From Sphingobium jiangsuense (GTDB lineage Bacteria > Pseudomonadota > Alphaproteobacteria > Sphingomonadales > Sphingomonadaceae), in assembly GCF_014196495.1 (NCBI RefSeq), contig NZ_JACIDT010000004.1:248001-312000 (forward strand): a stretch of 64,000 nt of DNA. The letters are read 5' to 3'. Positions 3,620 through 56,985 of this stretch are shown in pieces. How positions within the stretch are numbered: the first letter of the stretch is position 1; the number at the start of each line of letters is the position of its first letter. Made by a program: the position numbers and the translations under genes. The notes beneath the pieces are model-generated. The model saw nothing but the letters and a program-made list of their open reading frames with translations, searched no databases and was not told the origin of the DNA.

Positions 3620-3635
3620 CATCAGATTGGCGATG
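3620..3635. promoter_or_regulatory. CATCA-N6-CGATG dyad (regulon site 1)
   Basis: CATCAGATTGGCGATG, flanked by CC and AG. It lies just after the stop of the upstream SDR and 96 bases before the ATG at 3732, with a TTGACT 25 bases downstream. One of eight copies of the same dyad in this window. Confidence 0.7.
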
Positions 3636-3731
3636 AGTTGACCCGTCCGCCCGCGCCGCATTGACTTGCATCCGGCAGGTTCGGGATGGTCGGGCGGCGA
3701 GAGGCAGGACAACAGGCGAGGGAAGAACGGC

Positions 3732-4490
3732 ATGGCAGGCAGGCTGGAAGGAAAGACCGCGATCGTCACCGGCGGCGGTCAGGGCATAGGCGAGGGCATC
3801 GCCCGCGTTTTCGCGCAAGAGGGCGCGAGGGTGCTGATCACCGGCCGCACCGCGGACAAGCTGGCGGCGGTGGTCGACGGCATCGTCGCGGGCGGCGGAG
3901 AAGCGGCGTGGATCACCGGCACGGCGGGCGTCCGCGCCGACGCGCAGGCCGCCGTCGCCAAGGCTGTCGAGCTGTTCGGCGGGGTCGATATCCTCGTCAA
4001 CAACGCCCAGACCTCGCGCCCCGGCACCGCGTTCGAGGATCATGACGACGCCCTGTTCGACCTGACGCTGCAATCGGGGCTGTACGGCACTTTCCAGCAT
4101 ATGCAGGCGGCGCTGCCGCACATGAAGGGCAAGGGCGGATCGATCGTCAACATAGGATCGCGCGAAGGCATTTTCGGCGGCGTGGGCTTTGCCGCCTATG
4201 CGGCGACGAAAGAGGCCATTCGCGGCCTGTCGCGCACCGCCGCGCGGGAACTGGGCAAGTACAAGGTGCGCGTCAACGTCATCTGCCCCTCCGCGCTCAG
4301 CCCGATCGCCATCGATTATCTGGACAGCCACCCGGAGGAAGCCGAAATGTACCGCAAGGACATTGCCCTCGGCTATTTCGGCGATTGCGAGGCCGATGTC
4401 GCCCGCGCGGTGCTGTTCCTCGCCAGCGACGACAGCCAATATGTGACCGGCCAGACGATCAATGTCGATGGCGGTCTGGTGATGCTGTGA
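3732..4490 (+). CDS. SDR family oxidoreductase
   Basis: 252 residues, classical SDR: TGGGQGIG at 13-20, NNAQ at 90-93 (Gln in place of Gly), Tyr156/Lys160 in YAATK, C-terminal NVDGG. Likely an NAD(P)-dependent alcohol/ketone dehydrogenase. The start is set by GAGGGAAG eight bases upstream. The gap before it (3616-3731) carries regulon site 1, suggesting that transcription restarts here. Its last codons overlap the GTG start of the next SDR. Confidence 0.87.
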   Translation: MAGRLEGKTAIVTGGGQGIGEGIARVFAQEGARVLITGRTADKLAAVVDGIVAGGGEAAWITGTAGVRADAQAAVAKAVELFGGVDILVNNAQTSRPGTAFEDHDDALFDLTLQSGLYGTFQHMQAALPHMKGKGGSIVNIGSREGIFGGVGFAAYAATKEAIRGLSRTAARELGKYKVRVNVICPSALSPIAIDYLDSHPEEAEMYRKDIALGYFGDCEADVARAVLFLASDDSQYVTGQTINVDGGLVML

Positions 4491-5392
4491 GCGCCGCCCC
4501 GCCCGCCCTCGATCCGCCCGGCCCCGATTTCTCCGGCCGCACCGCCATCATCACCGGCGCGGGCAAGGGGCTGGGCAGCGCCTATGCCCGCTATCTGGCC
4601 GCACGGGGATGCGCGGTGGTCGTCGGCAATCGCCGGGCGGCGGACGGCGGTTCCCCGGCGCAGGCGGTGGTGGACGCGATCGTCGCGGCGGGCGGGCGGG
4701 CCGTGGCCCATGACGGCCCGGTCGAAACGGCGGCGTCGGCGATGGAGATGGTCGCCCTGGCCGAGCGACATTTCGGCCCGCCGGATATCTTCATCAGCAA
4801 TGCGGGCGTCCAGCACTGGCGCGACTTCGCCACGGTCACGCTGGAGGAGATGCGCAGCCTGCTGGAAATCAACCTGTGGGGCGTGATGCTGGGGCTGAAG
4901 GCGGTGTGGCCGGCGATGCTGGCGCGCGGCTATGGCCGCATCGTGCTGACCGGATCGAGCGCAGGGCTCTGGGGCCAGATGCAGTCGGCCGATTACGGCG
5001 CCTCCAAGGGGGCGATGGTCGGGCTGGCGCGCAGCCTCGCCCTGGACGTGCCGCCGGGCAAGGACATCAGGATCAACGTCCTCTGCCCCGCCGCCTATAC
5101 ACCACTGTCGGCAGGCAGCTTCGATCCCAAATGGGCGGACTACGCCTCGCCCGATCATGTCGCGCCGGTCGTCGGCTGGCTGTGCAGCCCCGGCTGCGAC
5201 ACGTCGGGCGGCATCTATCACAGCGGCGCGGGCCATATCCGCCGGGTGCAGATCGTCGAGGGCGCAGTGCACCATCTCTCCGAAGGGCCGGTCGATGCGG
5301 TGATGCGCGGCCTCGAAGCGCAGCCGGAATGGAACAGCTCCTTCGCGTCCGGCGCGGAGATCCTGCCGGAAATCGCCAAGGCGTCCTCCTGA
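4487..5392 (+). CDS. SDR family oxidoreductase with C-terminal extension
   Basis: 301 residues from a GTG that overlaps the preceding TGA (GTGA), so translation is probably coupled. TGAGKGLG at 23-30, SNAG at 104-107, Tyr170/Lys174 (YGASK). The C-terminal part GGIYHSGAGHIRRVQIVEG resembles the extension of the SDRs at 110 and 49780, which are of the MFE-2 hydroxyacyl-CoA dehydrogenase type. Substrate unknown. Last gene of the plus-strand SDR run. Confidence 0.86.
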   Translation: MSAAPPALDPPGPDFSGRTAIITGAGKGLGSAYARYLAARGCAVVVGNRRAADGGSPAQAVVDAIVAAGGRAVAHDGPVETAASAMEMVALAERHFGPPDIFISNAGVQHWRDFATVTLEEMRSLLEINLWGVMLGLKAVWPAMLARGYGRIVLTGSSAGLWGQMQSADYGASKGAMVGLARSLALDVPPGKDIRINVLCPAAYTPLSAGSFDPKWADYASPDHVAPVVGWLCSPGCDTSGGIYHSGAGHIRRVQIVEGAVHHLSEGPVDAVMRGLEAQPEWNSSFASGAEILPEIAKASS

Positions 5393-5414
5393 CCGGCGCG
5401 CGGGCGCGGAACGG

Positions 5415-5663
5415 TCAGCCGTCCGCTTCCCCGTCATCCTCGCCGGGGTGGACATTCTCGAACGGGCGCATGTCCGTCGCCAGCGCCATGATCCGGCGGC
5501 TTTCCTCGGCGGTGACGGGGCGGCCCTCGCTCACCATCGGGGTGCCGAGCGCGGGGTCGTGATGCACATTCTCATCGGGCCGGACGTCGGTGGCGACGGC
5601 CAATATCGTGCGGCTTTCGTCCTTGCTGATATCCGGGCTGATATCCTTCTCACGAGTGGGCAT
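5415..5663 (-). CDS. Small tandem-repeat protein of unknown function
   Basis: 82 residues, Asp/Glu rich, with no signal peptide, membrane segment or cysteine. Two copies of a 22-residue unit occupy residues 13-34 and 51-72, matching at 14 positions with consensus ESRxIxAxATDxRPxENVH. I do not recognise the family. The start is set by GGAGGAGG seven bases before ATG at 5663; the frame continues upstream to 5747 without a better site. It lies 58 bases downstream of the DMT transporter on the same strand, so they may share a transcript. The repeats could be a short metal-binding or protein-binding motif (Asp, Glu and His rich), which is speculation. Confidence 0.72.
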   Translation of the reverse strand: MPTREKDISPDISKDESRTILAVATDVRPDENVHHDPALGTPMVSEGRPVTAEESRRIMALATDMRPFENVHPGEDDGEADG

Positions 5664-5721
5664 GCGATCCTCCTCCGGTCGCTGTCGGCCGTCCTCTTCG
5701 CGGAACGGCGCTGCCCCCATG

Positions 5722-6627: not shown

Positions 6628-6717
6628 CCGGGGGCGATACTGCCCGCGCGGCCAAACCGCAACAGGTCCCGGCCCGGTCGGCCCGCCGCCATGCCCGTCC
6701 CCGCCCGCAAAGGCCGG

Positions 6718-7536
6718 TCAGTCGCCCATGACGAAGGCATGACCGGCCAGCGGCCCGATGCCGGTGACGCCGCCGTCCACCGCCAGCTCCACGCCGTTGA
6801 TGAAGCGCGCCTCGTCGCTCGCGAGGAACAGCACCGCCTGCGCGACGTCCCACGCGTCGCCCTCTATCCCCAGCGGGCCGACCTTGCGCCGCGCCTCGCG
6901 CATGTCGGCGGGGATCTTGCCCATCGCATGGGGCGTCATCACATGGCCGGGCGCTACGGTGTTGGCGCGGATGCCCTGTCGCCCGTGGAGCACGCCGATC
7001 TCGCGCGCGAGCTGCGCCATCGCCGCCTTGGACGGGCCATAGGCCAGCGCGCCCATCGCCCGCATCCCGGCGAGCGAGGATATGTTGACGATCGCGCCGC
7101 CGCCGGTGCGGGCCATTTCCGGCACCGCATATTTGCTCATCAGCATCGCGCTGGTGAGGTTGGTCGCGAGGATGCGGTTCCATGTCTCCGGCGTCACCGC
7201 CTCCAGGCTGACCGGGTTGGAAATGCCGACATTGTTGACCAATATGTCGAGCCGCCCGAACCGCCCTACCGCCGCCGTCACCAGCGCGGCGCAATCCTCC
7301 GCCTGGGCGACGTCGCCCGCACAGGCGATGGCCTCGCCCCCGTCGGCGGCGATGCGGGCGGCGGTCGCCTGCGCGCGGGCCGCCTCCAGATCGGCGCAGA
7401 CCAGCTTTGCCCCCTCCCGCGCCATCAGCAGGGCGATCGCGCGGCCGATGCCGATCTCCTCCCCGTCCGCCCCCGCGCCGGTCACGATCGCAACCTTGCC
7501 GGAAAGGCGGCCGAGATAGCGGGAAGGTTCGGGCAT
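6718..7536 (-). CDS. SDR family oxidoreductase
   Basis: 272 residues. The glycine loop is extended: TGAGADGEEIGIG at 19-31, with insertion after the first Gly. NNVG at 101-104, catalytic Tyr166/Lys170 in YGPSK. The second of two close ATGs (7536) is chosen because AGGAG sits eight bases upstream of it; the ATG at 7542 would leave only two. Divergent from the AraC-type regulator at 7654, which may control it. Confidence 0.86.
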   Translation of the reverse strand: MPEPSRYLGRLSGKVAIVTGAGADGEEIGIGRAIALLMAREGAKLVCADLEAARAQATAARIAADGGEAIACAGDVAQAEDCAALVTAAVGRFGRLDILVNNVGISNPVSLEAVTPETWNRILATNLTSAMLMSKYAVPEMARTGGGAIVNISSLAGMRAMGALAYGPSKAAMAQLAREIGVLHGRQGIRANTVAPGHVMTPHAMGKIPADMREARRKVGPLGIEGDAWDVAQAVLFLASDEARFINGVELAVDGGVTGIGPLAGHAFVMGD

Positions 7537-7602
7537 GGGCATGTCTCCTGACGTCCGGCGATGGGAAGGAAGGGGCCGACTATCGGCCATCGGCGCGGCC
7601 GG

Positions 7603-8640: not shown

Positions 8641-8642
8641 GG

Positions 8643-17040: not shown

Positions 17041-17056
17041 CATCCGTTTGTTGATG
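17041..17056. promoter_or_regulatory. CATC-N8-GATG dyad (regulon site 2)
   Basis: CATCCGTTTGTTGATG, whose arms extend to TTTCATC and GATGAAA (perfect 7-8-7). It starts three bases after the stop of the hydroxyacyl-CoA dehydrogenase and lies 70 bases before the PhyH ATG. A -10-like TAAGAT at 17103-17108 would put the dyad centre about 67 bases upstream of the transcription start. Confidence 0.7.
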
Positions 17057-21822: not shown

Positions 21823-22662
21823 TCAGGCGAAATGGCGGCGATAGCTGACGATCTTCGGCGGGTCGGGCAGGCGGACGACATTGTTCATCTCCTCCGTGCC
21901 GTCTTCCTCCAGGCACAGCGACCCCAGCCGGTCGCGCTGGCGCAGCAGCAGGGCCAGCATTTCCTCGCCCCGCTCTTCTATCACCTCCGACCGGGCCTGA
22001 ATGCTGATCGCGAGCCGGTCCATATGGCGGCGATGCGGCAGGAGAACCGCGACGCAGCCGGTGCCGTCCTCTTCCTGCGCGATGATCCAGCCCTTTTCGC
22101 GCAGCGCGCTCAACTCGCTGACCACGTCGGAAATCTTCACATGGCGCGCCGGATCGGGCTCGTCCGCGTTCAGGCGATGGACGGCGGAGCGGATATGCTC
22201 GTTGCGATAGCTCGACAGCAGCAGCCGCCCCTGCGGGCTGTGCAGCACCGGGCGGGTGTCGCCGCCATGCGCGTCGATCGCGCCTTCCGCATTGCCGTGC
22301 AGCACATGCAGGTGCTGGACCACATAATTGGCGTTGGTGGACAGCAGGACGGTCTCGTTGGTTTCCTCCGCGATCTCGTCGATGGCCGACAGCACGGGGC
22401 CGCCCCGGAACAGCGACGGCTTCACCCAGGCGCCCAGCAGCGCGACGCGCGCGGTCGGGCTGTAGGTGCGGCGAAAGCGGTTATAATGCAGATAGCCGAG
22501 GCGGGTCAGGCAGCGCAGCAGCTCGGACGTGCTCGACTGCGGATATTTGAGGGTGCGGGACATGTCCATGACGGTGGCATGGCGGCGGTCCTGGTCGAAA
22601 TATTCCAGTATCTCCAGCACGCGGTGCGCGGACTTAATGGTTCGGGAAGCGCTGGTTACCAT
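21823..22662 (-). CDS. IclR-family transcriptional regulator
   Basis: 279 residues. N-terminal winged helix (IKSAHRVLEILEYFDQ, then MSRTLKYPQSSTSELLRCL), followed by an IclR effector domain of about 180 residues. The start is set by AGGAGATCCC before ATG at 22662; the frame extends upstream through the divergent promoter and beyond, but that part is not coding. Divergent from another IclR gene at 22814, and probably the first gene of an operon with the MDR and acyl-CoA dehydrogenases. Confidence 0.9.
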   Translation of the reverse strand: MVTSASRTIKSAHRVLEILEYFDQDRRHATVMDMSRTLKYPQSSTSELLRCLTRLGYLHYNRFRRTYSPTARVALLGAWVKPSLFRGGPVLSAIDEIAEETNETVLLSTNANYVVQHLHVLHGNAEGAIDAHGGDTRPVLHSPQGRLLLSSYRNEHIRSAVHRLNADEPDPARHVKISDVVSELSALREKGWIIAQEEDGTGCVAVLLPHRRHMDRLAISIQARSEVIEERGEEMLALLLRQRDRLGSLCLEEDGTEEMNNVVRLPDPPKIVSYRRHFA

Positions 22663-22754: not shown

Positions 22755-22778
22755 GCGTTCGAAATTCCGAACGATTAT
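22755..22778. promoter_or_regulatory. IclR-type operator candidate between two IclR genes
   Basis: GCGTTCGAA-N8-CGATTAT. It contains a 16-base inverted repeat GTTCG-N6-CGAAC at 22757-22772, the half-site layout seen in some IclR-family operators such as the PcaR box. The same GCGTTCGAA/CGATTAT pair occurs at 44623-44645. Half-sites CATCATAT (22711-22718) and, inverted, TATGATGG (22776-22783) flank it. The gap 22663-22813 has no other feature. Confidence 0.6.
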
Positions 22779-22813: not shown

Positions 22814-23590
22814 ATGAACGCGAACGGCAAGGACGAACCACGGGTCAGCGGCCCAAGGGCGGTCACGCGGGTTCTCGATCTGCTGCTGCTGCTGGCGGGC
22901 AAGCCGGAGGGCCTCACCCTCGCGGAACTGAGCAACGCGCTATCGGTGCCCAAGAGCACCTTTCTCAGCACGTTGCGCGGCCTGTGCGAGCGGCATTTCC
23001 TGATCCATGAGGACGGCAGATACCGGCTCGGCTCCAAATCCTATCATTTCGCCAGCAAGATCGTCGCCAACTGGTCCGCGCCGGACATGGTGCGGTTGCA
23101 GGTGAAGGCGCTGGCGCGCGAAACCCGCGAGTCGGTCGGCTTCGCCATCGCCGACTGGGAAATCGGGCAGGCGATCTACACCGAGGCCGTCAACAGCACC
23201 CAGCCGGTGCATTATGCGATGCGCGCCGGCATCCGCGCGCCGCTCTATGCCAGTGCCGCCGGACGCGTGCTGCTCGCCTATGCGCCGCCCGAGCGGCTGG
23301 AGAGCTATCTCGACCGCGCCAATCTGAAGCAGCTGACCAGCAAGACCCGCACCGATCTCGGCTCGATCCGGGCCCATCTGGAGGAGATACGCCAGGCGGG
23401 CTATTGCGCCAGCTTCGGCGAGATGCTGAGCGACACCGCCGCGCTGGCCGTGCCGGTGCTGCAATCCGACGGATATATTCTGGGCGCGATGATGCTGGCC
23501 GCGCCGCTCGACCGGATGCGGGCCAATTATGAACGCCTGCTGGCCTCGGTGGTCGATGCCGGGCGCAACGCCTCCGCCGGGCTGGAATGA
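22814..23590 (+). CDS. IclR-family transcriptional regulator
   Basis: 258 residues. Winged helix at about 14-75 (VTRVLDLLLLLAGKPEG, LSNALSVPKSTFLSTLRGL), then the IclR effector domain with ARETRESVGFAIADW and YASAAGRVLLAY. Preceded by a GGGGGCAGG-type site. Different in sequence from its divergent neighbour, so the two regulators may answer different ligands. Likely controls the CMD-ligase-VOC-SDR operon downstream or itself. Confidence 0.92.
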   Translation: MNANGKDEPRVSGPRAVTRVLDLLLLLAGKPEGLTLAELSNALSVPKSTFLSTLRGLCERHFLIHEDGRYRLGSKSYHFASKIVANWSAPDMVRLQVKALARETRESVGFAIADWEIGQAIYTEAVNSTQPVHYAMRAGIRAPLYASAAGRVLLAYAPPERLESYLDRANLKQLTSKTRTDLGSIRAHLEEIRQAGYCASFGEMLSDTAALAVPVLQSDGYILGAMMLAAPLDRMRANYERLLASVVDAGRNASAGLE

Positions 23591-23614: not shown

Positions 23615-23630
23615 CATCATATGGGCGATG
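23615..23630. promoter_or_regulatory. CATCA-N6-CGATG dyad (regulon site 3, upstream copy of a tandem pair)
   Basis: CATCATATGGGCGATG. Its centre is 22 bases from that of the next copy, about two turns of DNA, so two dimers could bind on one face. It lies 107 bases before the CMD gene ATG. Confidence 0.7.
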
Positions 23631-23636: not shown

Positions 23637-23652
23637 CATCAGATGGCCGATG
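23637..23652. promoter_or_regulatory. CATCA-N6-CGATG dyad (regulon site 4, downstream copy of a tandem pair)
   Basis: CATCAGATGGCCGATG, 24 bases upstream of the TTGACG at 23677 and 85 bases before the CMD gene ATG. Its position relative to the promoter fits an activator. Confidence 0.75.
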
Positions 23653-23737: not shown

Positions 23738-24169
23738 ATGGCCGAACTGGACGACAAGCAGGAATCCGGCATTGCCTTCATCACCGGCGTCATGGGAGAG
23801 AAATTCGGCGACGCCTTCCGCGCCTCCGCACAGGCGGACGGCTTTTCGTCCGACATCACCCGCATGGCGGCGGGCTGGGCCTTTCACGACGCGTGGCAGC
23901 ATCCGGGCATCGGCCGCAAGGAAAAGAGCATCGCCATCATCTCCGCGCTGATCGCCTCGCGCCAGGCGCTGGAGTTGAAGAACCATGTGAAGATCGGCAT
24001 CGCCAACGGGCTGACGGTGAAGGAGCTGGAAGGCATATTGGTGCAGCTGACGCCCTATGTCGGCTTCCCCTGCATCGCATCGGCGCAGACCGCTGTGATC
24101 GAGGCGATGCGCGAGGCGGGCATTTCGCCCGATGGCCTCGAAACCTCGGAAGAGCGCGGCCTGCTCTGA
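23738..24169 (+). CDS. Carboxymuconolactone decarboxylase (CMD)-family protein
   Basis: 143 residues, all-helical CMD/AhpD fold: RKEKSIAIISALIASRQALE and LKNHVKIGIANGLTVKELEG. It lacks the CxxC of AhpD (its single Cys is in GFPCIAS), so peroxidase activity is unlikely. Such proteins act as lactone decarboxylases or as uncharacterised partners in degradation operons. Strong ribosome site GCAGGAGGA. First gene of an operon with ligase, VOC protein and SDR. Confidence 0.85.
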   Translation: MAELDDKQESGIAFITGVMGEKFGDAFRASAQADGFSSDITRMAAGWAFHDAWQHPGIGRKEKSIAIISALIASRQALELKNHVKIGIANGLTVKELEGILVQLTPYVGFPCIASAQTAVIEAMREAGISPDGLETSEERGLL

Positions 24170-31894: not shown

Positions 31895-33097
31895 TCAAAG
31901 CCCGAAGGCGAGCCTGGCGAGAATATTCTTCTGCACCTGCTTGGTGCCGCCGTAGATGGTCGCCGCGCGCGTGATCAGCGCGACGGTGGTGCGGCCGGGG
32001 ACATAATCGGGCCACGCCTCGTCCGGCGCGGGCGGCGGCGTCGGGGCGACGTCGAAATAGCGCGCGCCCTTGAGGCCAAGCAGGTCGACCTGCAACATCG
32101 TCACCTCCTGCTGCAATTCCGATCCCCTGATCTTCAGCACCGATGCGGCGGCGGCCTCCGGCGTTTCCAACTCCTCATGCGCGAGCACGCGCAGCACCGA
32201 CCATTCGAGCGCCAGCAGGTCCGCCTCCAGCCGGGCGAAGCGCGCGCGGATCGCCGGATCGGCGCTCAGCGGGCGGCCGTTGCGCCGCTCGCCCCGCGCG
32301 ATATCCTTGGCGCGCGCCAGCTCCCGCTTGCTCCAGTAGATGAAGCTCGACGTCGTGCGCTCATGCTCCAGCAGGAACTTGGCGTAGGTCCAGCCCATGC
32401 CCGGCTCGCCGATCAGCTGGTCGGCGGGCACCTCGACATTGTCGAGGAACACCTCGCACAAATGGGCCTCGCCGTTGATCTGCGGAATCTGGCGCACGGT
32501 GACGCCGGGCGTGTCCATCCTGATGATCAGGAAGGAGATGCCGCGCTGCGGCTTCACCGTCTTGTCGGTGCGGACGAGGAAGAAACCCCAGTCGGCATGC
32601 GCCGCGCCGCTGGTCCAGATCTTCTGGCCGTTGACGACATATTTGTCGCCCACCAGCTCGGCCGAGGTGCGCAGCGAGGCGAGGTCCGACCCGGAGCCCG
32701 GCTCGGAAAAGCCCTGCGCCCACATCGTCTGCCCCTCGCGGATCATCGGCAGGAAGCGCTCGCGCAGATAGGGCGAGCCATAGCTGTAGATCACCGGCCC
32801 CAGCATATGGGTGCCGCCCCAGTCGAATTCCGGCGCGTCGGCGGCGTAGAGCTCCTCATTGAAGATGAACAACTGCATCGGCGTCCAGCCGCACCCGCCG
32901 AACTCCACCGGCCAGTGGGGAACGGCGCGTCCATGTTCGTTGAGGATGCGCATCCAGCGCAGCTGGTCGGTCACATCGGCGTTGTTCGCCACCTTCCGGC
33001 GTTGCCGCTCCCGCATGTCGGGGGGCAGCACGTCGTTGATGAAGCCCCGGATTTCCTGCCGGAAATTCTCCAGTTCGGGGTCGAGACGCAATTCCAT
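31895..33097 (-). CDS. Acyl-CoA dehydrogenase, larger subunit of a second heteromeric pair
   Basis: 400 residues, the same length as the larger subunit at 19563. GFSEPGSGSDLASLRT flavin loop, WTSGAAHADWGFFLVR, and C-terminal IYGGTKQVQKNILARLAFGL (Lys-Gln-Val where the first pair has Asn-Glu-Ile). Start at MELRLDPELENF with GGAGCGGAT upstream. Divergent from the SDR at 33258, with regulon site 5 in between. Confidence 0.9.
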   Translation of the reverse strand: MELRLDPELENFRQEIRGFINDVLPPDMRERQRRKVANNADVTDQLRWMRILNEHGRAVPHWPVEFGGCGWTPMQLFIFNEELYAADAPEFDWGGTHMLGPVIYSYGSPYLRERFLPMIREGQTMWAQGFSEPGSGSDLASLRTSAELVGDKYVVNGQKIWTSGAAHADWGFFLVRTDKTVKPQRGISFLIIRMDTPGVTVRQIPQINGEAHLCEVFLDNVEVPADQLIGEPGMGWTYAKFLLEHERTTSSFIYWSKRELARAKDIARGERRNGRPLSADPAIRARFARLEADLLALEWSVLRVLAHEELETPEAAAASVLKIRGSELQQEVTMLQVDLLGLKGARYFDVAPTPPPAPDEAWPDYVPGRTTVALITRAATIYGGTKQVQKNILARLAFGL

Positions 33098-33191: not shown

Positions 33192-33207
33192 CATCATCAA
33201 TGCGATG
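33192..33207. promoter_or_regulatory. CATCA-N6-CGATG dyad (regulon site 5)
   Basis: CATCATCAATGCGATG, extended by one pair to CCATC...GATGG. It lies between the divergent acyl-CoA dehydrogenase (94 bases) and SDR (50 bases) starts, 15 bases upstream of the TTGACA at 33223. Confidence 0.7.
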
Positions 33208-33257: not shown

Positions 33258-34028
33258 ATGTCTCCCCAGCCGCAAGCCGCCGACAGCCTCATCTGGATTT
33301 CCGGCGCGACCGAGGGCATCGGCCTCGGCCTGTCGCGCACCGTGCCCTATGATCGGGCGCGGATCGTCAACCTGTCCCGGCGGCGACACCCGGAGCTGGA
33401 AAGCCATTATCTCGATCTGGCCGACCACCGCAGCCTGACGGCCGTGGCGGAGCATTTCCTGCGCGAGCTGGCCGCCTTTCGCGGGCAGCGGGCGATCTTC
33501 ATCCAGAATGCGCATTTGCGCGGGATGACCGGCTTCGCCGCCGAAACCGGTGCGGAGGACGTCGCCCGCGACATCGCCGCCAATGTCGCCGCGCCGCTCC
33601 TGCTGGGCGACGCTTTCCTGCGCGCGGTCGTGGAAAGCGGCTACAGGGGCGAGGCCGGGCTGGTGATGATGTCGTCGGCGGCGGCCCGTTCGCCCTATGA
33701 GGGCCAGTCCATCTATTGCGCGGGCAAGGCGGCGCTCGAAATGTGGGTGCGCGTCGTGCGGCGGGAGAATGAGCGGCGCGGCCGGTCCCATATCTGGGTG
33801 ACGGCGGTGCGGCCCGGCTTCGTCGACACCGGGCTGACCCGCCATGTCGCCGCGATGGCGGACCGCGACTATCCGGTCGCCTCCACGCTGCGCGCGCAGC
33901 TGGTGGCAGGCGGACAGGCGATGGACGCGGACAGCGCCGCGCGGCAGATCTGGGCCGCGCTGCCCGCCCGGCAATCGCTGCTGCTGTTCGGCGAGCAGGT
34001 TCAGGTCGAGCAGCCCGGCGGCGGCTGA
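33258..34028 (+). CDS. SDR family oxidoreductase, divergent
   Basis: 256 residues. The glycine loop reads SGATEGIG (15-22), the NNAG position is QNAH (83-86), and the catalytic pair Tyr153/Lys157 (YCAGK) is intact. Resembles the benzil-reductase/YueD-like subgroup more than the classical SDRs around it. No ribosome site precedes the ATG at 33258, consistent with a leaderless message. Single gene, convergent with the GMC oxidoreductase. Confidence 0.8.
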   Translation: MSPQPQAADSLIWISGATEGIGLGLSRTVPYDRARIVNLSRRRHPELESHYLDLADHRSLTAVAEHFLRELAAFRGQRAIFIQNAHLRGMTGFAAETGAEDVARDIAANVAAPLLLGDAFLRAVVESGYRGEAGLVMMSSAAARSPYEGQSIYCAGKAALEMWVRVVRRENERRGRSHIWVTAVRPGFVDTGLTRHVAAMADRDYPVASTLRAQLVAGGQAMDADSAARQIWAALPARQSLLLFGEQVQVEQPGGG

Positions 34029-34062: not shown

Positions 34063-35748
34063 TCAGCGCGCGTCGGCCAGCACCATGTCAGCGCCTTTTT
34101 CCGCGATCATCATCGTCGCCGCATTGGTGTTGCCGGAAACGACATCGGGCATGACCGAGGCGTCGATGACGCGCAGGCCGGTTACGCCGTTCACCTTCAG
34201 CTCGGCGGAGAGCACCGCGTCCGGCGCCGTGCCCATCGCGCAGGTGCTGGTCTGGTGATAGCCGGTCGATCCGGCCGCGCGCGCGAAGGCGAGCAGCGCC
34301 TCGTCGCTTTCCAGCGCCGCGCCGGGCGTCAGCTCATGGTCGTAATAGGGCGCGAGGGCCGGGCTTTGCAGCACCCGCCGCGCCCAGCGCAGGCTCGCCA
34401 CCTGCGCCCGCTGGTCCGCCTCGGCCGAGAGGAAATTGGGCCGGATGGCGGGCGGCTGGCGGAAATCGGCCGAGCGGATGTGGATGGAGCCCCTGGATTG
34501 CGGCCGCATCACATAGCCGCCCACGGTGATGCCGGGCTCGCTTTCCATCGTCATCGCGCCATTTTTCGCCAGCGCCTCGAAATCGACCGTGGCCGGGCTG
34601 GCAAAGAACTGGATATCCGGCAGGTCGAGCGCCGGGTCGGATTTCAGAAACGCGGTGAGGTTGGACCCGCCGAGCGCGAGCAGGCCGGAGCGGGTGAAGG
34701 CGAAGCGCAGCATCTGGCCGACAAGGCGCAGGCCGCGCGACATTTCGTTGAAGCCGGGCGAGCCGGGCTTCATGCGCGCCCGCACCATCGCGGCATAATG
34801 ATCCTGGAGGTTTTCGCCCACGCGCGGCGAATCGGCGACCACCTCCAGCCCCAGCGCGCGCAGCCTCTCGGCATCGCCGATGCCCGACAGTTCGAGCAGC
34901 TGCGGCGAGTTGATCGCCCCGCCCGCGAGGATGACCTCGCCCCGCGCGAGGATGCGCCGCCGCGTGCCGCCGCGATAATAGTCGACGCCGACCGCCCTTG
35001 TGCCGTCGAAGACGATGCGCGCGGCGTGCGCGCCCGTCACCACCCGCAGATTGGGGCGGGACATGGCCGGGTGCAGATAGGCGACGGAGGCCGACACCCG
35101 CAGGCCGCGATAGGCATTGAGCCGCACGCGCGCCACCCCTTCCCGCGTGGTGCCGTTGAGGTCGGTGGCGACCGGCGCCCCGGCTTCCTCGAAGGCGCGG
35201 GTCATCACGTCCAGCATCGGATGGCGCATCGGAATGTCGCTGATGTACAGCAGCGCGTCGCTGTCGCCGGAGGCGATATCCTCGCCATGCTGCCGCTCGA
35301 TCCGGCGGAAATAGCGCTCCGCCTCGTCCCAGCCCCAGCCGGTCAGGCCGCGTTGCCGCCAGCCTTCATAATCTTCCGGCAGGCCGCGCACCCACAGCAT
35401 GCCGTTGATCGAGGAGGAACCGCCCAGCACCTTGCCGCGCGGGAAGAAATGCTGCCGCCCGTCGCTGCCCGGATCGGGCTCGGTCACGTAGTTCCAGTTG
35501 ACCCTGGGGTCCTTCAGCATCTTGGTGAAGCCCGCCGGCACATGGATGTTGAGCGCGCTCAACATCCGGGCCGGGTTGAGGAGGTGGCGGCTGGGCCGGT
35601 CGTCCTCGCCCGCTTCCAGCAACACGACCCTGTGCCGTCCGCCCGCGCTCAGCCGATTGGCCAGCACGCATCCGGCGGAGCCCGCGCCCACGATCACATA
35701 ATCGGCCTCCTCGGCCGATGCGGCACCGGATTGCAGGCTCTGGTTCAT
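34063..35748 (-). CDS. GMC-family flavoprotein oxidoreductase (choline/alcohol dehydrogenase-like)
   Basis: 561 residues. FAD-binding YVIVGAGSAGCVLANRLSAG, GMC signature GKVLGGSSSINGMLWVRG, second signature region GAINSPQLLELSGIG, and active-site His in TGYHQTSTCAMGT; ends in NTNAATMMIAEKGADMV. Oxidises a primary or secondary alcohol using FAD. Start at MNQSLQSG after AGAGAGGA; the frame extends upstream into the intergenic dyad. Single gene, divergent from the SDR-led operon at 35931. Confidence 0.91.
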   Translation of the reverse strand: MNQSLQSGAASAEEADYVIVGAGSAGCVLANRLSAGGRHRVVLLEAGEDDRPSRHLLNPARMLSALNIHVPAGFTKMLKDPRVNWNYVTEPDPGSDGRQHFFPRGKVLGGSSSINGMLWVRGLPEDYEGWRQRGLTGWGWDEAERYFRRIERQHGEDIASGDSDALLYISDIPMRHPMLDVMTRAFEEAGAPVATDLNGTTREGVARVRLNAYRGLRVSASVAYLHPAMSRPNLRVVTGAHAARIVFDGTRAVGVDYYRGGTRRRILARGEVILAGGAINSPQLLELSGIGDAERLRALGLEVVADSPRVGENLQDHYAAMVRARMKPGSPGFNEMSRGLRLVGQMLRFAFTRSGLLALGGSNLTAFLKSDPALDLPDIQFFASPATVDFEALAKNGAMTMESEPGITVGGYVMRPQSRGSIHIRSADFRQPPAIRPNFLSAEADQRAQVASLRWARRVLQSPALAPYYDHELTPGAALESDEALLAFARAAGSTGYHQTSTCAMGTAPDAVLSAELKVNGVTGLRVIDASVMPDVVSGNTNAATMMIAEKGADMVLADAR

Positions 35749-35830: not shown

Positions 35831-35846
35831 CATCACTCTTATGATG
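35831..35846. promoter_or_regulatory. Perfect CATCA-N6-TGATG dyad (regulon site 6)
   Basis: CATCACTCTTATGATG, perfect 5-6-5. It sits almost exactly midway between the divergent starts at 35748 (82 bases) and 35931 (84 bases), so one site could serve both genes. A -10-like TAAAAT is at 35901-35906 on the plus side. Confidence 0.75.
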
Positions 35847-35930: not shown

Positions 35931-36719
35931 ATGGGAAGGCTTTTCTCTCTTGAGGGGCGGACCGCGATGGTCACCGGCGCGTCGCGCGGGCTGGGCCATG
36001 CGATCGCGCTCGGCCTTGCCGAGGCGGGCGCCTCCCTCATCCTCGCGGCGCGCGATGCGGCCAAGCTGGAACAGACGGCGGAGGAAATCCGCGCCATGGG
36101 GCGGGAGGCGCGCACCATCGCCTTCGACCTGGGCGATCTGGGCGCGGTGCAGGCGGCCATCGACCGGCTGATCGCGGAAGGCGCGCGCATCGACGTCCTC
36201 GTCAACAACGGCGCCATCGGCGGCTGGGGCGCGCTGCACGAATCGACGCTGGATCACTGGGAGACGATGTTCGACGTGAACGTGTCCTCCATGTACCTGC
36301 TCTGCCGCGATCTGTCGCGCGGCATGGTGGACCGCAAATGGGGCCGCATCATCAATTTCGCCTCCTATGTCGCGGACCGGGGGCGACCCAATCTGTCGGC
36401 CTATACCGCCAGCAAGCACGCGGTGCTGGGCCTGACGCGGGCGATCGCCGCCGACCTCGCCCCCCATGGCGTGACCTGCAACGCCATCGCGCCGGGCTTT
36501 TTCGATACCGACATGGCCGCGCCCACCGTCGGCCATCCGCAGCGGGCGAAGATATTCCGCGACGCGATCGCGCTCGGCCGGTTCGGCGACCCGGCCGAAA
36601 TGGTGGGGCCGGTGCGCTTCCTCGCGTCCGAAGCCTCCGGCTACATCACCGGCCATATGCTGCCGGTCGACGGCGGCGTCGCCAATATTCTTTCCCTGCC
36701 CGTGGTCGTCGAGACCTGA
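35931..36719 (+). CDS. SDR family oxidoreductase
   Basis: 262 residues, classical: TGASRGLG at 15-22, NNGA near 92, Tyr158/Lys162 in YTASK, C-terminal VDGG. ATG at 35931 follows GAGGACAGGAT; a GTG at 35916 is less likely. First gene of a six-gene plus-strand operon with aldehyde dehydrogenase, MFS transporter, ligase, epoxide hydrolase and crotonase, so it probably oxidises the alcohol whose aldehyde the next enzyme takes. Confidence 0.88.
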   Translation: MGRLFSLEGRTAMVTGASRGLGHAIALGLAEAGASLILAARDAAKLEQTAEEIRAMGREARTIAFDLGDLGAVQAAIDRLIAEGARIDVLVNNGAIGGWGALHESTLDHWETMFDVNVSSMYLLCRDLSRGMVDRKWGRIINFASYVADRGRPNLSAYTASKHAVLGLTRAIAADLAPHGVTCNAIAPGFFDTDMAAPTVGHPQRAKIFRDAIALGRFGDPAEMVGPVRFLASEASGYITGHMLPVDGGVANILSLPVVVET

Positions 36720-50781: not shown

Positions 50782-52014
50782 TCAGATCTGCCACACCAGC
50801 GGCAGCCGTTCGACGCTGCCGTTGACGCCGGTGCGGAACCGGGGCGCGTCCTCCGGGTCGAGCGCGAAGTCCGGGATGCGGGGCAGCCATTCCTCCAGCA
50901 ATATCCTGATCTCGATCCGCGCGAGCATCGAGCCGGGGCAGACGTGCGGCCCGGCGCCGAAGGTGGTCTTGCTGTTCGACTTGCGCGTGAAATCAACACG
51001 CAGCGGGTCGGGATAGTCGCGCGGATCGACCGCGCCGAACGGCGTCGCCAGCATCAGCTTGTCGCCCGCGCGCATGGCGACGCCATGGAAATCCATGTCG
51101 CGCACGACCGTGCGCCCCGGATTGGTCAGCGCGAAACGGCGCAGGAATTCCTCGGTCGCGGCGGCGGACAGGCCGGGGTCGGCCGCCAGCTGGTGGCGGT
51201 GCTCCGGCGAGCCGGCGAGGAAGTGCATGATATGCCCCATCATCGACGCCACCGTATCCAGCCCGCCGATCAGCAGCAGCGTCGTCACGCCGACCGCCTC
51301 GTGCAGCGTGATGGGCCGCCCGTCGATCTGCGCGGTGGCGATGCGGCTGATCAGGTCGTCGCCCGGATGGGCGGCCCGCTCGGCGACCCGCTCGCCCGCA
51401 TAGCGGAACAGCAGCGCCAGCTTCTCCTCCTTCGGCCCGTCGGCGGCGACCTGCGCATTGGCGAGCGGCAGCAGCTCCAGCCTGTCGGCTTCGGGCAGGT
51501 CCACCATCCGCATGAAGATCCTGATCGGCAGATGCTGCGCGAATTCCGTCACGAATTCGCAGCGGCCACGGGGCTTCAGCCCCTCGATCAACTCGATGGC
51601 GAGCGCGCGGGCTTCCTTCTCCCGCTCCTTCAGCGCGGGCACGATGAAGGCGGGCGCGAACAGGCGGCGGAAGGTCTGCTGCTCCGGCGGGTCCATCTCG
51701 ATCGGCGCCAGCAGCGGATCGCCGGGCGCGCGCACCTTGTCCACCGACGCGCCCTGGCTGGAGGTGAAGCGGGCGGGGTCGGCGAAGGCCTCCGCCAGAT
51801 AATCGCGCCGGGACAGGATCCAGTGCCCGCCATTATAGGGCGACCAGAAGATGTCCGGCACCTTCCCCTGCATGCGGGCATAGGGCTCATGATAATAAGC
51901 CTCGCCCTTCATCGGGCGATAGGCGTCGAAATCGACGACGAGATGGGCGGGCACATGATCCGGCACCCTGCCGGGCGCCGCCGGACCGCCGCCATTGTGG
52001 ATATCTGTCTGCAT
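50782..52014 (-). CDS. Cytochrome P450
   Basis: 410 residues, soluble bacterial P450. Heme-binding FGAGPHVCPGSM with ligand Cys359, ExxR in EEFLRRFAL, and the oxygen-binding I-helix as LLLIGGLDTVASMM, with Asp-Thr conserved. Hydroxylates a hydrophobic substrate; needs ferredoxin and reductase, neither of which is encoded here. The transcript may be leaderless, since a -10-like element lies eight bases before the ATG. First gene of the operon ending at 47937. Confidence 0.94.
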   Translation of the reverse strand: MQTDIHNGGGPAAPGRVPDHVPAHLVVDFDAYRPMKGEAYYHEPYARMQGKVPDIFWSPYNGGHWILSRRDYLAEAFADPARFTSSQGASVDKVRAPGDPLLAPIEMDPPEQQTFRRLFAPAFIVPALKEREKEARALAIELIEGLKPRGRCEFVTEFAQHLPIRIFMRMVDLPEADRLELLPLANAQVAADGPKEEKLALLFRYAGERVAERAAHPGDDLISRIATAQIDGRPITLHEAVGVTTLLLIGGLDTVASMMGHIMHFLAGSPEHRHQLAADPGLSAAATEEFLRRFALTNPGRTVVRDMDFHGVAMRAGDKLMLATPFGAVDPRDYPDPLRVDFTRKSNSKTTFGAGPHVCPGSMLARIEIRILLEEWLPRIPDFALDPEDAPRFRTGVNGSVERLPLVWQI

Positions 52015-52075: not shown

Positions 52076-52091
52076 CATCACAGCTATGATG
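52076..52091. promoter_or_regulatory. Perfect CATCA-N6-TGATG dyad (regulon site 7)
   Basis: CATCACAGCTATGATG, perfect 5-6-5. It lies 61 bases before the P450 start and just inside the gap after the TetR gene, in the same position relative to its promoter as site 4. Confidence 0.75.
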
Positions 52092-52101: not shown

Positions 52102-52752
52102 TTACCGATCCGCCGGTTCGGCCGCCTTGAACAGCATGCGCGCCAGCGCCGCCTCCGCCACATCCTCGCGCGGCCCCGTTTCCGGGAAGAACCAGTCGCG
52201 GAACAGCACCGCCCCGGCCAGCATGCCGAAGCAATAGCGCACCAGCAATTCCGGCTCCACGTCGAAGCGCAGGCCCGCCGCCTCATATTGCGTGCGCATG
52301 CGCGACACCGCGCGCGAGAAATAATCGTCCAGCGCGTGCAGCGGCTCCGCCTCCATGTCGCCGGTGGACTTGACCAGCGCGTGCAGCAGGTCGGCATTGT
52401 CGCGCAGGAAAGGATAGACGCTGTGCACGAAATGGGCGCTGCGCTGCTCGCGGTCGGGCGGCATCATGTCGCTGGCGCTGAGGAACTCGCTGAAGCGGGC
52501 GTTGAACGGCCCGACCACCGCCTCGGCGAACAGCGCCGCCTTGCTGCCGAAATTGTTGAAGATCAGCGGCTCCGCCACCCCCGCCCGCTCGGCGACGAGG
52601 CGGGTGGTCGCGCCCGAATAGCCCCGTTCCGCAAAGCAGCTGCGCGCCGCCGACAGGATGAGCGCGCGTATCTCCTCCGTGGAGCGGCGGACGCGGCGCG
52701 GCTTGCCCGCGGCGGCGGGTTCGGCGCCAGTTTCAGCGGAGGTTTCAGTCAT
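52102..52752 (-). CDS. TetR-family transcriptional regulator
   Basis: 216 residues. N-terminal helix-turn-helix (ALILSAARSCFAERGYSGAT, RLVAERAGVAEPLIFNNF) and a helical ligand domain. A basic Ala/Pro-rich tail of about 25 residues precedes it. It lies directly upstream of the P450 operon on the same strand and divergent from the amidohydrolase at 52861, with a strong palindrome between them (52791-52810), the likely site of autoregulation. Confidence 0.92.
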   Translation of the reverse strand: MTETSAETGAEPAAAGKPRRVRRSTEEIRALILSAARSCFAERGYSGATTRLVAERAGVAEPLIFNNFGSKAALFAEAVVGPFNARFSEFLSASDMMPPDREQRSAHFVHSVYPFLRDNADLLHALVKSTGDMEAEPLHALDDYFSRAVSRMRTQYEAAGLRFDVEPELLVRYCFGMLAGAVLFRDWFFPETGPREDVAEAALARMLFKAAEPADR

Positions 52753-52860: not shown

Positions 52861-54603
<1,743 letters not shown>

Positions 54604-54705
54604 CGCCATCATCCGCCGCAACGGGCACCCCCGTTCCGGCGGCGCGTGCAGGCGCCGCCGGAATTGCCGCGTTCTGCGCGGCCAGTCGAGGAGGAGAAGA
54701 GCATA

Positions 54706-55860: not shown

Positions 55861-55873
55861 AGTCGGGCCGAGG

Positions 55874-55891
55874 CCCCAGCCGCGGCTGGGG
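55874..55891. terminator. 18-bp perfect palindrome between convergent genes
   Basis: CCCCAGCCGCGGCTGGGG, located 13 bases after the Gfo/Idh stop and abutting the hydrolase stop region. Likely a bidirectional terminator without T tracts; it also resembles the core of the REP palindromes at 18200. Confidence 0.5.
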
Positions 55892-55892
55892 T

Positions 55893-56888
55893 TCAGCCGG
55901 CGGCGGCAGCGGCGAGCATGCGCGACCAGCCATGCAGCTTTTCCCACAATATCGCCCGCGTCGAGGCGAAATTGTGCATATGCGCCATGGTCGGCGCGAT
56001 GAAGATGGTGACGTCGCGCGAGGCGGAATAGGCGGCGGCCTCCCGGTGCGGATGGGGACAGGTGTCCCGTTCCCCGTTCGCGACCAGCACCGGCACGGCC
56101 ACCCGCGCGGCGTCCTCGGCAAAGGCGCCGGGCAGCATCATGCGCACCGCGCAATGGGGAATGGTGAGGCTGCCGAAATCCGGGGCCGTCTCGCGGATCG
56201 GATAGCCGCCCTTCATGTCCTCATGCAATATGTCGGCGGGCACATCCTCCCAATGGAAGGCGTAGAGATAATCGACGCCCTCATGGTCGGTCTGCTCATG
56301 GCTGGTGACGCGCCCTTCCGCCACGGGCAGGAAACGCCGCTTGCCCTTTTCCAGCGCCGCCTCGTCCCGCTGCGGCAGCACGGTGTGGATCGCGCTGACG
56401 CCGCAGGGGGCGATGGCGTCGAACGGGGCGAAGCGCCCCTGCGTCAGGATCGTGACGCCGCCGCCCATGGACTGGCCCATGCCGACCTTGAACAGCGGCC
56501 CCGTGGCGGGGAAGCGCTTGTCCGCCTCGCCCCGTTCCAGCAGGCGCGCGACCTGCCGCACGCAGCTGTCATGCGTGGCGGCGAGGGTCTGGAAATCGAT
56601 TTTCGACAGATCGGGGATCGTGCTGTCCCCCACGCCGACATGATCGATGGCGACATGGATGATCCCGCGCTCCGCATGCCAGCGCGCCTCGCCATAGCCG
56701 TCATGCGCGTCGAAGCGCAGGTCGAAATAGCGCCGGGAATAGCCGCCGCCGGGCGCCGCGAAGATCGCCACCGGGCGGGGCGGCATCAGCGCCGGGTCGG
56801 GCAGGCAGAGCGTCACCGCCATTTCCAGCGGCGCGCCGAGCACGGGCGCCGCCTCACGGACGTCGATCCGCTTTTCGAGTATCAGCAT
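55893..56888 (-). CDS. Alpha/beta hydrolase
   Basis: 331 residues. Nucleophile elbow GQSMGG with Ser130, later VLVANGERDTCPHP (acid region) and catalytic His in APTMAHMHNF. APGGGYSRRYFD near residue 45 supplies the oxyanion region. Esterase or lactonase activity is likely. Start at MLILEKRIDV after TGGAGAAGG; the longer frame to 56981 would run through regulon site 8. Divergent from the thiolase. Confidence 0.8.
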   Translation of the reverse strand: MLILEKRIDVREAAPVLGAPLEMAVTLCLPDPALMPPRPVAIFAAPGGGYSRRYFDLRFDAHDGYGEARWHAERGIIHVAIDHVGVGDSTIPDLSKIDFQTLAATHDSCVRQVARLLERGEADKRFPATGPLFKVGMGQSMGGGVTILTQGRFAPFDAIAPCGVSAIHTVLPQRDEAALEKGKRRFLPVAEGRVTSHEQTDHEGVDYLYAFHWEDVPADILHEDMKGGYPIRETAPDFGSLTIPHCAVRMMLPGAFAEDAARVAVPVLVANGERDTCPHPHREAAAYSASRDVTIFIAPTMAHMHNFASTRAILWEKLHGWSRMLAAAAAG

Positions 56889-56969
56889 CGCCTTCTCCAC
56901 TCTCGTGATGGGCGGGAAGATAGGCGCGCCGCCGGGCGGAGGCATCGGGAAAATGGCCGCCGCCCATTC

Positions 56970-56985
56970 CATCAGAACCATGATG
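56970..56985. promoter_or_regulatory. Perfect CATCA-N6-TGATG dyad (regulon site 8)
   Basis: CATCAGAACCATGATG, perfect 5-6-5. It lies exactly midway between the divergent starts at 56888 and 57068 (81 and 82 bases). A -10-like TATCTT (56922-56917, minus) faces the hydrolase gene and TATAGC (57022-57027) faces the thiolase gene. Confidence 0.75.

What the first reader, a model, noticed from the sequence alone, without database searches (positions are those of the whole stretch)
3620..56985. A recurrent 16-bp dyad, CATC-N8-GATG, marks seven promoter regions of the island
Eight copies lie at 3620, 17041, 23615, 23637, 33192, 35831, 52076 and 56970, all in gaps directly upstream of catabolic genes (SDR, PhyH, CMD-ligase operon, acyl-CoA dehydrogenase pair/SDR, GMC oxidoreductase/SDR operon, P450 operon, hydrolase/thiolase). 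Consensus CATCA-N6-YGATG with a pyrimidine before and usually a purine after; the copies at 35831, 52076 and 56970 are perfect 5-6-5 dyads. The spacer differs each time, so this is not a copied repeat. By simple base composition well under one copy is expected in the roughly 4 kb of non-coding DNA. It looks like the operator of one transcription factor that unites the island. Its geometry is like that of CRP-family sites (5-6-5) or PadR sites (4-8-4), but the sequence matches no operator I know.
Basis: partly seen in the sequence, partly recalled or inferred. Interest (0 to 1): 0.9.

Follow-up and report, generated by a model that had tools for sequence, protein, structure and literature searches.

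The report
Conserved operator of a catabolic gene island
A short mirror-image DNA sign stands before many genes of a roughly 95-kb degradation island in a sphingomonad bacterium; it is kept at several of the same promoters in related species and is most likely the landing site of one regulator encoded inside the island.

Summary
The dyad is real. All eight copies stand where stated; four more CATC-N8-GATG lie inside genes. In the 95.7-kb island end of the contig (window plus 31.7 kb beyond) CATCA-N6-TGATG-type dyads occur 10 times in 7.4 kb of intergenic DNA, against none in 19.4 kb of intergenic DNA of C4:1-240000. Pooled over ten stretches (this one included) the intergenic count is 58; no other spacer from 2 to 14 exceeds 7 and no other arm of the same letters exceeds 4. 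The dyad recurs at several orthologous promoters in Sphingobium with changing spacers. It is therefore the operator of a local regulon that runs past the window. Copies 3620 and 17041 are not conserved; 17041 is weak.

CRP-like and PadR-like readings fit less well. Read as CATCRY-N4-RYGATG it has the length and TCR...YGA core of IclR-family sites. TetR1 and TetR2 are missing from some genomes that keep the dyad. In two other genera the dyad becomes ATCGC-N4-GCGAT around relatives of the window's second IclR gene (21823-22662), in one genome also just before that gene. I name this protein as the likeliest regulator (0.62), perhaps an activator. No binding has been shown.

The parts
3620..3635 (.). 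Dyad CATCAGATTGGCGATG, 97 nt before SDR gene 3732-4490
   Evidence: PWM 20.3; not found before orthologs of this gene (1 of 9 tabulated, the window's own)
17041..17056 (.). Weak dyad CATCCGTTTGTTGATG, 71 nt before PhyH gene; doubtful member
   Evidence: PWM 13.6, below several in-gene matches; not conserved (1 of 8 tabulated)
21823..22662 (-). IclR2: IclR-family regulator with recognition helix PQSSTSELL; proposed regulator of the dyad
   Evidence: Pfam IclR_C and HTH_IclR (on 21823-22620); start read; orthologs in all 8 Sphingobium-type islands compared; several neighbourhoods of its more distant relatives carry [AT]TCRY-N4-RYGA[AT]
22757..22772 (.). Motif B GTTCGAAATTCCGAAC in the IclR1/IclR2 divergent gap, probable auto-operator of one of the two IclR genes
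   Evidence: in this gap in 9 of 9 island genomes with 0-1 mismatch to GTTCGA-N4-TCGAAC; at up to one mismatch no other intergenic copy in the stretches scanned; fits the published IclR consensus NGTYCRAW4TYGRACN
22814..23590 (+). IclR1: second IclR-family regulator, divergent from IclR2
   Evidence: Pfam; orthologs 65-71% in 7 of 8 genomes asked, not in G206
23615..23630 (.). Dyad CATCATATGGGCGATG before the CMD/ligase operon (first of a tandem pair, 22 bp centre to centre)
   Evidence: before the CMD ortholog in 4 of 9 genomes tabulated (own, Schung, Sfulig, Sfaniae)
23637..23652 (.). Dyad CATCAGATGGCCGATG (second of the pair)
23738..24169 (+). CMD-family gene, first gene of a presumed regulated operon
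   Evidence: Pfam CMD
31895..33097 (-). Acyl-CoA dehydrogenase, presumed regulated gene
   Evidence: Pfam
33192..33207 (.). Dyad CATCATCAATGCGATG between divergent acyl-CoA dehydrogenase and SDR genes
   Evidence: 8 of 9 genomes tabulated, all but G206; 15-16 nt from TTGACA / TTGCRC boxes
33258..34028 (+). SDR, presumed regulated gene
   Evidence: Pfam
34063..35748 (-). GMC oxidoreductase, presumed regulated gene
   Evidence: Pfam
35831..35846 (.). Perfect dyad CATCACTCTTATGATG between divergent GMC and SDR genes
   Evidence: 6 of 7 genomes tabulated for w34063, all but G206
35931..36719 (+). SDR, first gene of a presumed regulated operon
   Evidence: Pfam
50782..52014 (-). Cytochrome P450, presumed regulated gene
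   Evidence: Pfam p450
52076..52091 (.). Perfect dyad CATCACAGCTATGATG before the P450 gene, just downstream of TetR1
   Evidence: PWM 22.5; no ortholog of the P450 in the stretches compared
52102..52752 (-). TetR1; judged not to be the common regulator
   Evidence: no ortholog label in the G220, G174, G114 stretches, which carry the dyad; best matches in those genomes 38-40% are their TetR3-type genes
55893..56888 (-). Alpha/beta-hydrolase-like gene, presumed regulated
   Evidence: Pfam Hydrolase_4, just at cut-off
56970..56985 (.). Perfect dyad CATCAGAACCATGATG between divergent hydrolase and thiolase genes
   Evidence: before the hydrolase ortholog in 4 of 9 genomes tabulated (own, G220, G174, G114), before the thiolase ortholog in 2 of 2 (own, Schung)
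57068..58261 (+). Thiolase, presumed regulated gene
   Evidence: Pfam

Best explanation
The dyad is the operator of an IclR-family dimer encoded in the island, most likely IclR2 (21823-22662, minus strand). It reads CATCRY-N4-RYGATG: a six-base half-site on each side of a free four-base centre. SHOWN by computation: on contig C4 it is specific to intergenic DNA of the island, it is kept at several orthologous promoters while its spacer drifts, and one dyad often lies between two divergent genes. Good sites continue past the window at C4:314294, 315028 and 343205, and a weaker one at C4:336094. INFERRED: IclR2 binds it. The two TetR genes next to dyads are missing from some genomes that keep the dyad, and two genomes of other genera in which no IclR1 ortholog was found have a diverged ATCGC-N4-GCGAT dyad around an IclR2 relative. 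INFERRED, weaker: because several dyads lie upstream of -35-like boxes at preferred distances, the protein probably activates transcription when it binds a pathway compound. Motif B would be the site through which IclR1 or IclR2 regulates the iclR1/iclR2 pair.
For: Controls: 58 intergenic and 14 coding hits at spacer 6 against 0-7 intergenic at other spacers from 2 to 14 and at most 4 for any of 29 other same-letter arms; 10 hits in 7.4 kb island intergenic DNA against 0 in 19.4 kb of C4:1-240000. CATCA/6 ranks first among all five-base arms and spacers 0-16 in 4 of the 5 island stretches so enumerated (WIN, G114, G220, Schung; not G345). Orthologous promoters, within 260 nt, with one-mismatch forms allowed: 8 of 9 (ACAD gap), 6 of 7 (GMC gap), 6 of 7 (w88183 side of the w86839/w88183 gap) and 6 of 8 (IclR gap) genomes tabulated. 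TetR2 has no match at E<=1e-15 in G220, G174, G114, G345; TetR1 has no ortholog label in the G220, G174, G114 stretches. G206, with no IclR1 match at E<=1e-20 and no LysR match at E<=1e-60 but with an IclR2 relative, has 22 intergenic ATCGC-N4-GCGAT dyads (8 perfect, 14 with one mismatch) against 1-6 at other spacers, one of the 14 standing 56 nt before that relative. [AT]TCRY-N4-RYGA[AT]: G350 9 against at most 4 at other spacers; nine further IclR2-like neighbourhoods together 21 against 1-8. Published IclR group 1 consensus GKTYCRYW3-4RYGRAMC.
Against: No binding or expression data. In the window itself the IclR1/IclR2 gap has motif B but no good dyad, nor has that of S. faniae; three of the six hits in that gap elsewhere are one-mismatch forms (CATTA or TAATG). 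The outer bases CA differ from the GT/GK of the published IclR consensus. Autoregulation over 18 IclR2-like genes is inconclusive: 7 of 18, but the same arm at spacers 0, 3, 6, 7 gives 6-7. IclR1, AraC (7654) and LysR (C4:339380) co-occur with the dyad in the Sphingobium-type islands. The G206 and G350 stretches hold many other relatives of island genes, a TetR3 relative among them, so their dyad is not tied to IclR2 alone. Five of the eleven IclR2-like neighbourhoods show no dyad of this kind among their top-ranked ones, and the general pattern was chosen. In C4:1-240000 that general pattern is also found 4 times at spacer 4, no more than at spacer 1. The activator reading rests on pattern matches to -35-like boxes that were not tested against shuffles.
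Confidence: 0.62

Rival explanations
1. The dyad is bound by IclR1 (22814-23590), or by both IclR proteins, and motif B by the other.
For: IclR1 orthologs in 7 of 8 genomes asked and in 5 of 397 family genomes, all of them carriers of the island; the dyad lies in the shared gap in 6 of 8 genomes tabulated; the tandem dyads of the window follow its gene.
Against: G206 has no IclR1 match at E<=1e-20 yet shows 22 diverged dyads; G350 is not among the 5 genomes with a hit (E<=1e-40) and its 38-kb stretch has no IclR1-labelled gene.
Confidence: 0.17
2. Another conserved island regulator binds the dyad: LysR (C4:339380-340282), AraC (7654-8640) or a TetR.
For: LysR ortholog in 8 of 9 genomes asked; AraC ortholog in the stretches of 7 of 7 Sphingobium-type genomes compared; a dyad lies before the LysR gene in three named Sphingobium; TetR3 relatives in the G350 and G206 stretches.
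Against: LysR boxes follow T-N11-A (recalled); the dyad is T-N10-A and CATCA-N7 is not enriched (5 against 58); LysR has no match at E<=1e-60 in G206; no dyad before LysR in G220, G174, G114 or the window. AraC proteins bind direct repeats (stated in PMC12882949) and none was labelled in the G206 or G350 stretches. TetR1 and TetR2 fail presence tests; TetR3 was not labelled in the stretches of the four named Sphingobium, but those genomes were not searched whole for it.
Confidence: 0.11
3. A chromosomal regulator outside the island (for example CRP-like) binds the dyad and was recruited by the island.
For: The island occurs in different genera and could borrow a host regulator; 5-6-5 symmetry is CRP-like.
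Against: No intergenic copies in 240 kb of the same contig outside the island; of 27 perfect places genome-wide only 2 outside the island are not in called genes.
Confidence: 0.07
4. Chance or coding artefact of common ATC/GAT codons.
For: 21 of 27 perfect genome places are in called genes; 4 of 12 window copies are in genes.
Against: Spacer, arm and density controls and conservation at orthologous promoters.
Confidence: 0.02

Closest known systems
IclR-family group 1 operators (Suvorova and Gelfand 2021, PMC8222616), subgroup NGTYCRAW4TYGRACN
   Same: Even 16-bp palindrome with a four-base centre and TCR...YGA core; tandem copies in the window 22 bp apart, within the published 18-22; catabolic targets; regulator gene near target operons
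   Different: Outer bases CA instead of GT; position 6 a mixture of C, T and G instead of A; nine gaps with good dyads over about 92 kb, whereas that paper says IclR regulators generally control themselves and one or two adjacent operons
PcaR/PcaU/PobR regulators of aromatic-acid catabolism (IclR family)
   Same: The NCBIfam model of this group is the best match of both IclR1 and IclR2
   Different: Both far below the curated cut-off (112.3 and 55.6 against 284.75 bits); their listed operator halves resemble motif B, not the dyad
PheR of Sphingobium sp. SHPJ-2 (PMC13273656)
   Same: IclR regulator of a catabolic cluster in the genus of the relatives used here
   Different: Essential core GCAACG within a 44-bp footprint, a repressor of a phenanthrene operon; not this dyad
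EdcR of Caenibius tardaugens (PMC8700777)
   Same: Palindromic operator shared by promoters of a steroid cluster in a sphingomonad
   Different: TetR family; operator TnnCnnTACnAnTnGTAnnGnnA

Membership tests
IclR-family group 1 operator | Palindrome with YCRY-W3-4-RYGR core | tested here: inconclusive
   Positions 3-5 fit (T .99, C .96, A .78/G .20), but positions 3 and 4 were largely fixed by the choice of sites; position 6 is C or T in only 67%; the four-base centre is only weakly A/T. Consensus
IclR-family group 1 operator | Outer bases G-K-T (GT in the even subgroup) | tested here: not met
   Positions 1-2 are C .91 and A 1.0 among 49 distinct sites that were selected for CATCA with at most one mismatch. 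So the dyad is not filed in a published subgroup, only as IclR-like
IclR-family group 1 operator | Tandem sites 18-22 nt between centres in many regulators | tested here: inconclusive
   22 in the window; 31 in G220, G174, G114 and G345; about 28 in Schung
IclR-family group 1 operator | Bound by an IclR-family protein | not testable with these tools
   Needs gel shift, footprint or DAP-seq
IclR-family transcription factor (protein 21823-22662) | HTH_IclR and IclR_C domains | tested here: met
   Pfam HTH_IclR 34.6 bits (cut-off 22), IclR_C 43.7 bits (cut-off 24) (on the 265-aa form 21823-22620)
CRP-family site | TGTGA-N6-TCACA-like halves (recalled) and a CRP/FNR protein | tested here: inconclusive
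   Spacing 5-6-5 fits but the halves differ; no CRP/FNR domain among the 20 proteins scanned with Pfam; other genes not scanned
LysR box | T-N11-A, ATC-N9-GAT (recalled) | tested here: not met
   Dyad is ATC-N8-GAT; the one-base-longer spacer is not enriched
TetR operator of TetR1 or TetR2 | Regulator present wherever the operator is | tested here: not met
   (TetR1 by labels in fetched stretches, TetR2 by whole-genome search)

The most novel reading that the evidence does not exclude
One IclR-type activator runs a whole mobile island of about 95 kb or more (nine gaps with good dyads, up to 13 promoters) as a single regulon, and its operator has changed along with the island's spread between genera (CATCRY to ATCGC to TTCGC half-sites around an unchanged PQSS recognition helix), while a divergent paralog keeps a GTTCGA site for the regulator pair.
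Probability: 0.4. Interest if true: 0.62.

Novelty: new member of a known kind. Interest (0 to 1): 0.5.

Why it matters
It gives a testable operator, a named candidate regulator and a target list for a large sphingomonad catabolic island that includes a 3-ketosteroid-delta1-dehydrogenase-type gene. It would let one find the inducing compound with a reporter, delimit the island by its regulon, and build a sensor. It is also a natural series for regulator-operator co-evolution within the IclR family.

Tried and rejected
TetRX, an extra TetR of Sphingobium islands, was first considered because a GATC variant of the dyad stands beside it. The divergent gap there has another palindrome (TTTAATTG...CAATTAAA) and the gene has no counterpart at that place in the window, so it was dropped. 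TetR1 and TetR2 were rejected by presence tests. Tandem spacing was considered as proof of IclR tetramers and not used, because 22, 28 and 31 bp all occur. Autoregulation of IclR2 relatives was tested and is inconclusive (of 32 loci given the script found no recognition helix in 14, which were dropped before the count of 18; one of these, L176, had shown a one-mismatch dyad). A plasmid with relatives of both IclR proteins (Pontibrevibacter) showed no dyad family, only two-mismatch hits. Rfam at gathering thresholds found nothing in three loci, among them the two unexplained perfect places. Neither structure prediction nor fold search was run. Five library searches were made: three on regulators or regulons with Sphingobium or Sphingomonadaceae among the terms, one on IclR and steroid degradation, one on the literal pattern (no paper). 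Among the titles and abstract starts listed I saw none on this dyad, but only open-licence papers are held and most listed papers were not opened.

Limits of counts: the related genomes are not independent, so the 58 is not 58 events. Genes were called by a home-made codon score, not by a curated annotation. G345 was left out of the weight matrix but is inside the pooled 58; the unbiased enumeration did not rank the dyad first there. The search form allows CATC-N8-GATG and several one-mismatch forms, two of which (CATTA, TAATG) were added after seeing such sites. For the one-sided pattern CATCA-N6-YGATG the genome has 152 strand hits, of which only the first places are listed; outside C4 I examined 9 one-sided places, chosen for A/T-rich spacers, 8 in called genes and 1 not.


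Full report
OBSERVATION. The pattern CATC-N8-GATG occurs 12 times in the window (shuffle mean 3.26, largest of 100 shuffles 8). The other four (14452, 39524, 42064, 58150) lie inside called genes. The stricter CATCA-N6-YGATG gives 13 strand matches against a mean of 0.55. The window is C4:248001-312000 of a 4.82-Mb genome in 67 contigs.

IS IT MORE THAN CHANCE. Genome-wide there are 27 perfect CATCA-N6-TGATG places. Of these, 21 are inside called genes. The six others are three window copies, C4:315028, C1:2508 and C22:4530; the last two lie where no gene was called but stop-free frames of 100 codons or more cover them, so they may be coding. Raw counts therefore favour genes, but density does not. 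In the 95.7-kb end of contig C4 from the window start, the dyad (one transition allowed at the fifth base of one arm) occurs 10 times in 7.4 kb of intergenic DNA and 4 times in genes; in C4:1-240000 it occurs 0 times in 19.4 kb of intergenic DNA and 3 times in genes. Pooled over ten stretches of nine genomes (the window's included), spacer 6 gives 58 intergenic and 14 coding hits; spacers 2-5 and 7-14 give 0-7 intergenic; the 29 other arms with the letters of CATCA give at most 4. In an unbiased count of five-base inverted repeats with spacers 0-16, CATCA with spacer 6 ranks first in WIN, G114, G220 and S. chungbukense, but not in G345.

THE ISLAND BEYOND THE WINDOW. Much of the gene order and content is shared in the stretches compared. 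A position weight matrix from 49 distinct sites adds C4:314294, C4:315028, C4:343205 and, weaker, C4:336094 (window coordinates 66294, 67028, 95205, 88094). The IclR1 ortholog was found in 5 of 397 family genomes at E<=1e-40; of the 11 same-genus genomes listed there only the window's own has it, which suggests horizontal spread.

CONSERVATION AT ORTHOLOGOUS PROMOTERS. Counts are genomes with the dyad (one-mismatch forms allowed, within 260 nt of the gene) out of genomes tabulated. High: acyl-CoA dehydrogenase gap (33192) 8 of 9; GMC gap (35831, read at w34063) 6 of 7; w88183 6 of 7 by pattern, the window's own being the weaker C4:336094; IclR1/IclR2 gap 6 of 8 (not in the window genome, not in S. 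faniae; three of the six are one-mismatch forms; also present in G345). Partial: CMD gene (23615/23637) 4 of 9; hydrolase (56970) 4 of 9, and at the thiolase side 2 of 2. Absent: 3620 1 of 9 and 17041 1 of 8, the window's own each time; 52076 had no orthologous gene to compare. Alignments of the better gaps show the arms kept while spacers and flanks drift.

SHAPE AND POSITION. Among 49 distinct sites (selected with at most one mismatch in CATCA...TGATG, so the arms are partly fixed by selection) position 5 is A .78 / G .20, position 6 C .35, T .32, G .26, and there is little signal outside the 16 bp. Read as CATCRY-N4-RYGATG, the site has the 16-bp length, four-base centre and TCR...YGA core of even IclR group 1 sites, but CA instead of GT outside (PMC8222616; passages and sections 4, 13, 14, 19 read). 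Tandem copies in the window stand 22 bp apart; that paper reports 18-22 for many IclR regulators, but relatives here have about 28 and 31. Before two promoters the dyad ends 15-16 nt from a conserved -35-like box (TTTGACA before w33258, CTTGCRCC before w31895). Averaged over 47 promoter groups, TTG[ACT][CA] is commonest 0-3, 24-27 and 12-15 nt after the dyad (5.35, 5.33 and 3.58 groups; other four-base bins up to 55 nt hold 0-2.33). The peaks are about 12 nt apart, near but not exactly one helical turn. This is suggestive of an activator; it was not tested against shuffles.

WHICH REGULATOR. TetR2, which stands between two dyads just outside the window, has orthologs (57-58%) in the four named Sphingobium but no match at E<=1e-15 in G220, G174, G114 and G345. 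TetR1 has no ortholog label in the G220, G174 and G114 stretches; the 38-40% matches there are their TetR3-type genes. IclR1, IclR2, AraC and LysR remain. A second palindrome, motif B (GTTCGA-N4-TCGAAC), stands in the IclR1/IclR2 gap of 9 of 9 island genomes with 0 or 1 mismatch; at that limit there is no other intergenic copy in the stretches scanned, though one-mismatch copies occur in genes and two-mismatch ones in a few other gaps. It fits the published NGTYCRAW4TYGRACN. So two IclR genes go with two palindromes of the same 6-4-6 geometry. G206, of another genus, has no IclR1 match at E<=1e-20 and no LysR match at E<=1e-60 but an IclR2 relative (40%). Its stretch, rich in relatives of island genes, carries 22 intergenic ATCGC-N4-GCGAT dyads (8 perfect, 14 with one mismatch; 13 more in genes) against 1-6 at spacers 0-3 and 5-11; one of the 14 lies 56 nt before the IclR2 relative. 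I then took 34-40 kb around ten more IclR2-like genes. The general form [AT]TCRY-N4-RYGA[AT], chosen after a first look, is intergenic 9 times in G350 (other spacers at most 4) and 21 times summed over the other nine (other spacers 1-8); in C4:1-240000 it is 4 (other spacers 0-4). By unbiased rank such a dyad leads or nearly leads in G350, G011, G221, G160 and G201, not in G196, G094, G293, G150 and G522. G350 and G206 also carry a TetR3 relative and many other relatives of island genes, so TetR3 is not excluded there; it was not labelled in the stretches of the four named Sphingobium, whose genomes were not searched whole for it. A direct test for dyads upstream of 18 IclR2-like genes is inconclusive.

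The recognition helix of IclR2 is PQSSTSELL in all nine islands and begins PQSS in the relatives whose helix was found. This fits a conserved specificity; residue-to-base assignment was not attempted with data. I therefore name IclR2 with 0.62 and leave 0.17 to IclR1.

WHAT THE ISLAND MAY DO. Window gene 8643-10301 scores above the curated cut-off for a 3-ketosteroid-delta1-dehydrogenase model (852.9 against 789 bits). With a P450, a Rieske-type oxygenase below its models' cut-offs and beta-oxidation genes this points to a steroid- or terpenoid-like substrate; the substrate is inference.

KNOWN WORK. PheR (passages read), EdcR (passages) and bile-salt clusters of Caenibius (passages) use other operators or regulators. 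Five library searches listed no title or abstract start on this dyad; the library holds open-licence papers only.

VERDICT. A real, conserved local operator; a new regulon of a known kind, with an off-consensus IclR-like motif and an unusually large target set if IclR2 is confirmed.

Noticed in passing
window 22757-22772: Second palindrome GTTCGA-N4-TCGAAC with an extra TTTTTCGAATTG box beside it, kept in the IclR1/IclR2 gap of 9 of 9 islands.
   Followed up: yes
L051, about 7370-7415: The gap between the Gfo/Idh-type gene and the extra TetR gene of Sphingobium islands has its own palindrome TTTAATTG...CAATTAAA.
   Followed up: no
window 8643-10301: Gene above the NCBIfam cut-off for a 3-ketosteroid-delta1-dehydrogenase, a hint at a steroid-like substrate.
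   Followed up: partly
window 42064-42079: A perfect dyad inside a gene (41252-42361); a one-mismatch form with the same spacer stands inside a gene of the S. faniae stretch at 118299, so it may be protein-driven.
   Followed up: no
C4:326744-331541 (window coordinates 78744-83541): A run of genes after a third TetR (TetR3) beyond the window, P450- and ferredoxin-like by eye (not scanned), in which no intergenic dyad scored above 6.5.
   Followed up: no
upstream of w44754 in Sphingobium stretches: A further TTTTTTCGAAAATTGCCCGATTA-like element resembling part of motif B.
   Followed up: no
C1:2508 and C22:4530 (L001, L040): Two perfect dyads outside the island in loci of lower GC (0.52 and 0.61) where no gene was called; stop-free frames cover them.
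   Followed up: partly
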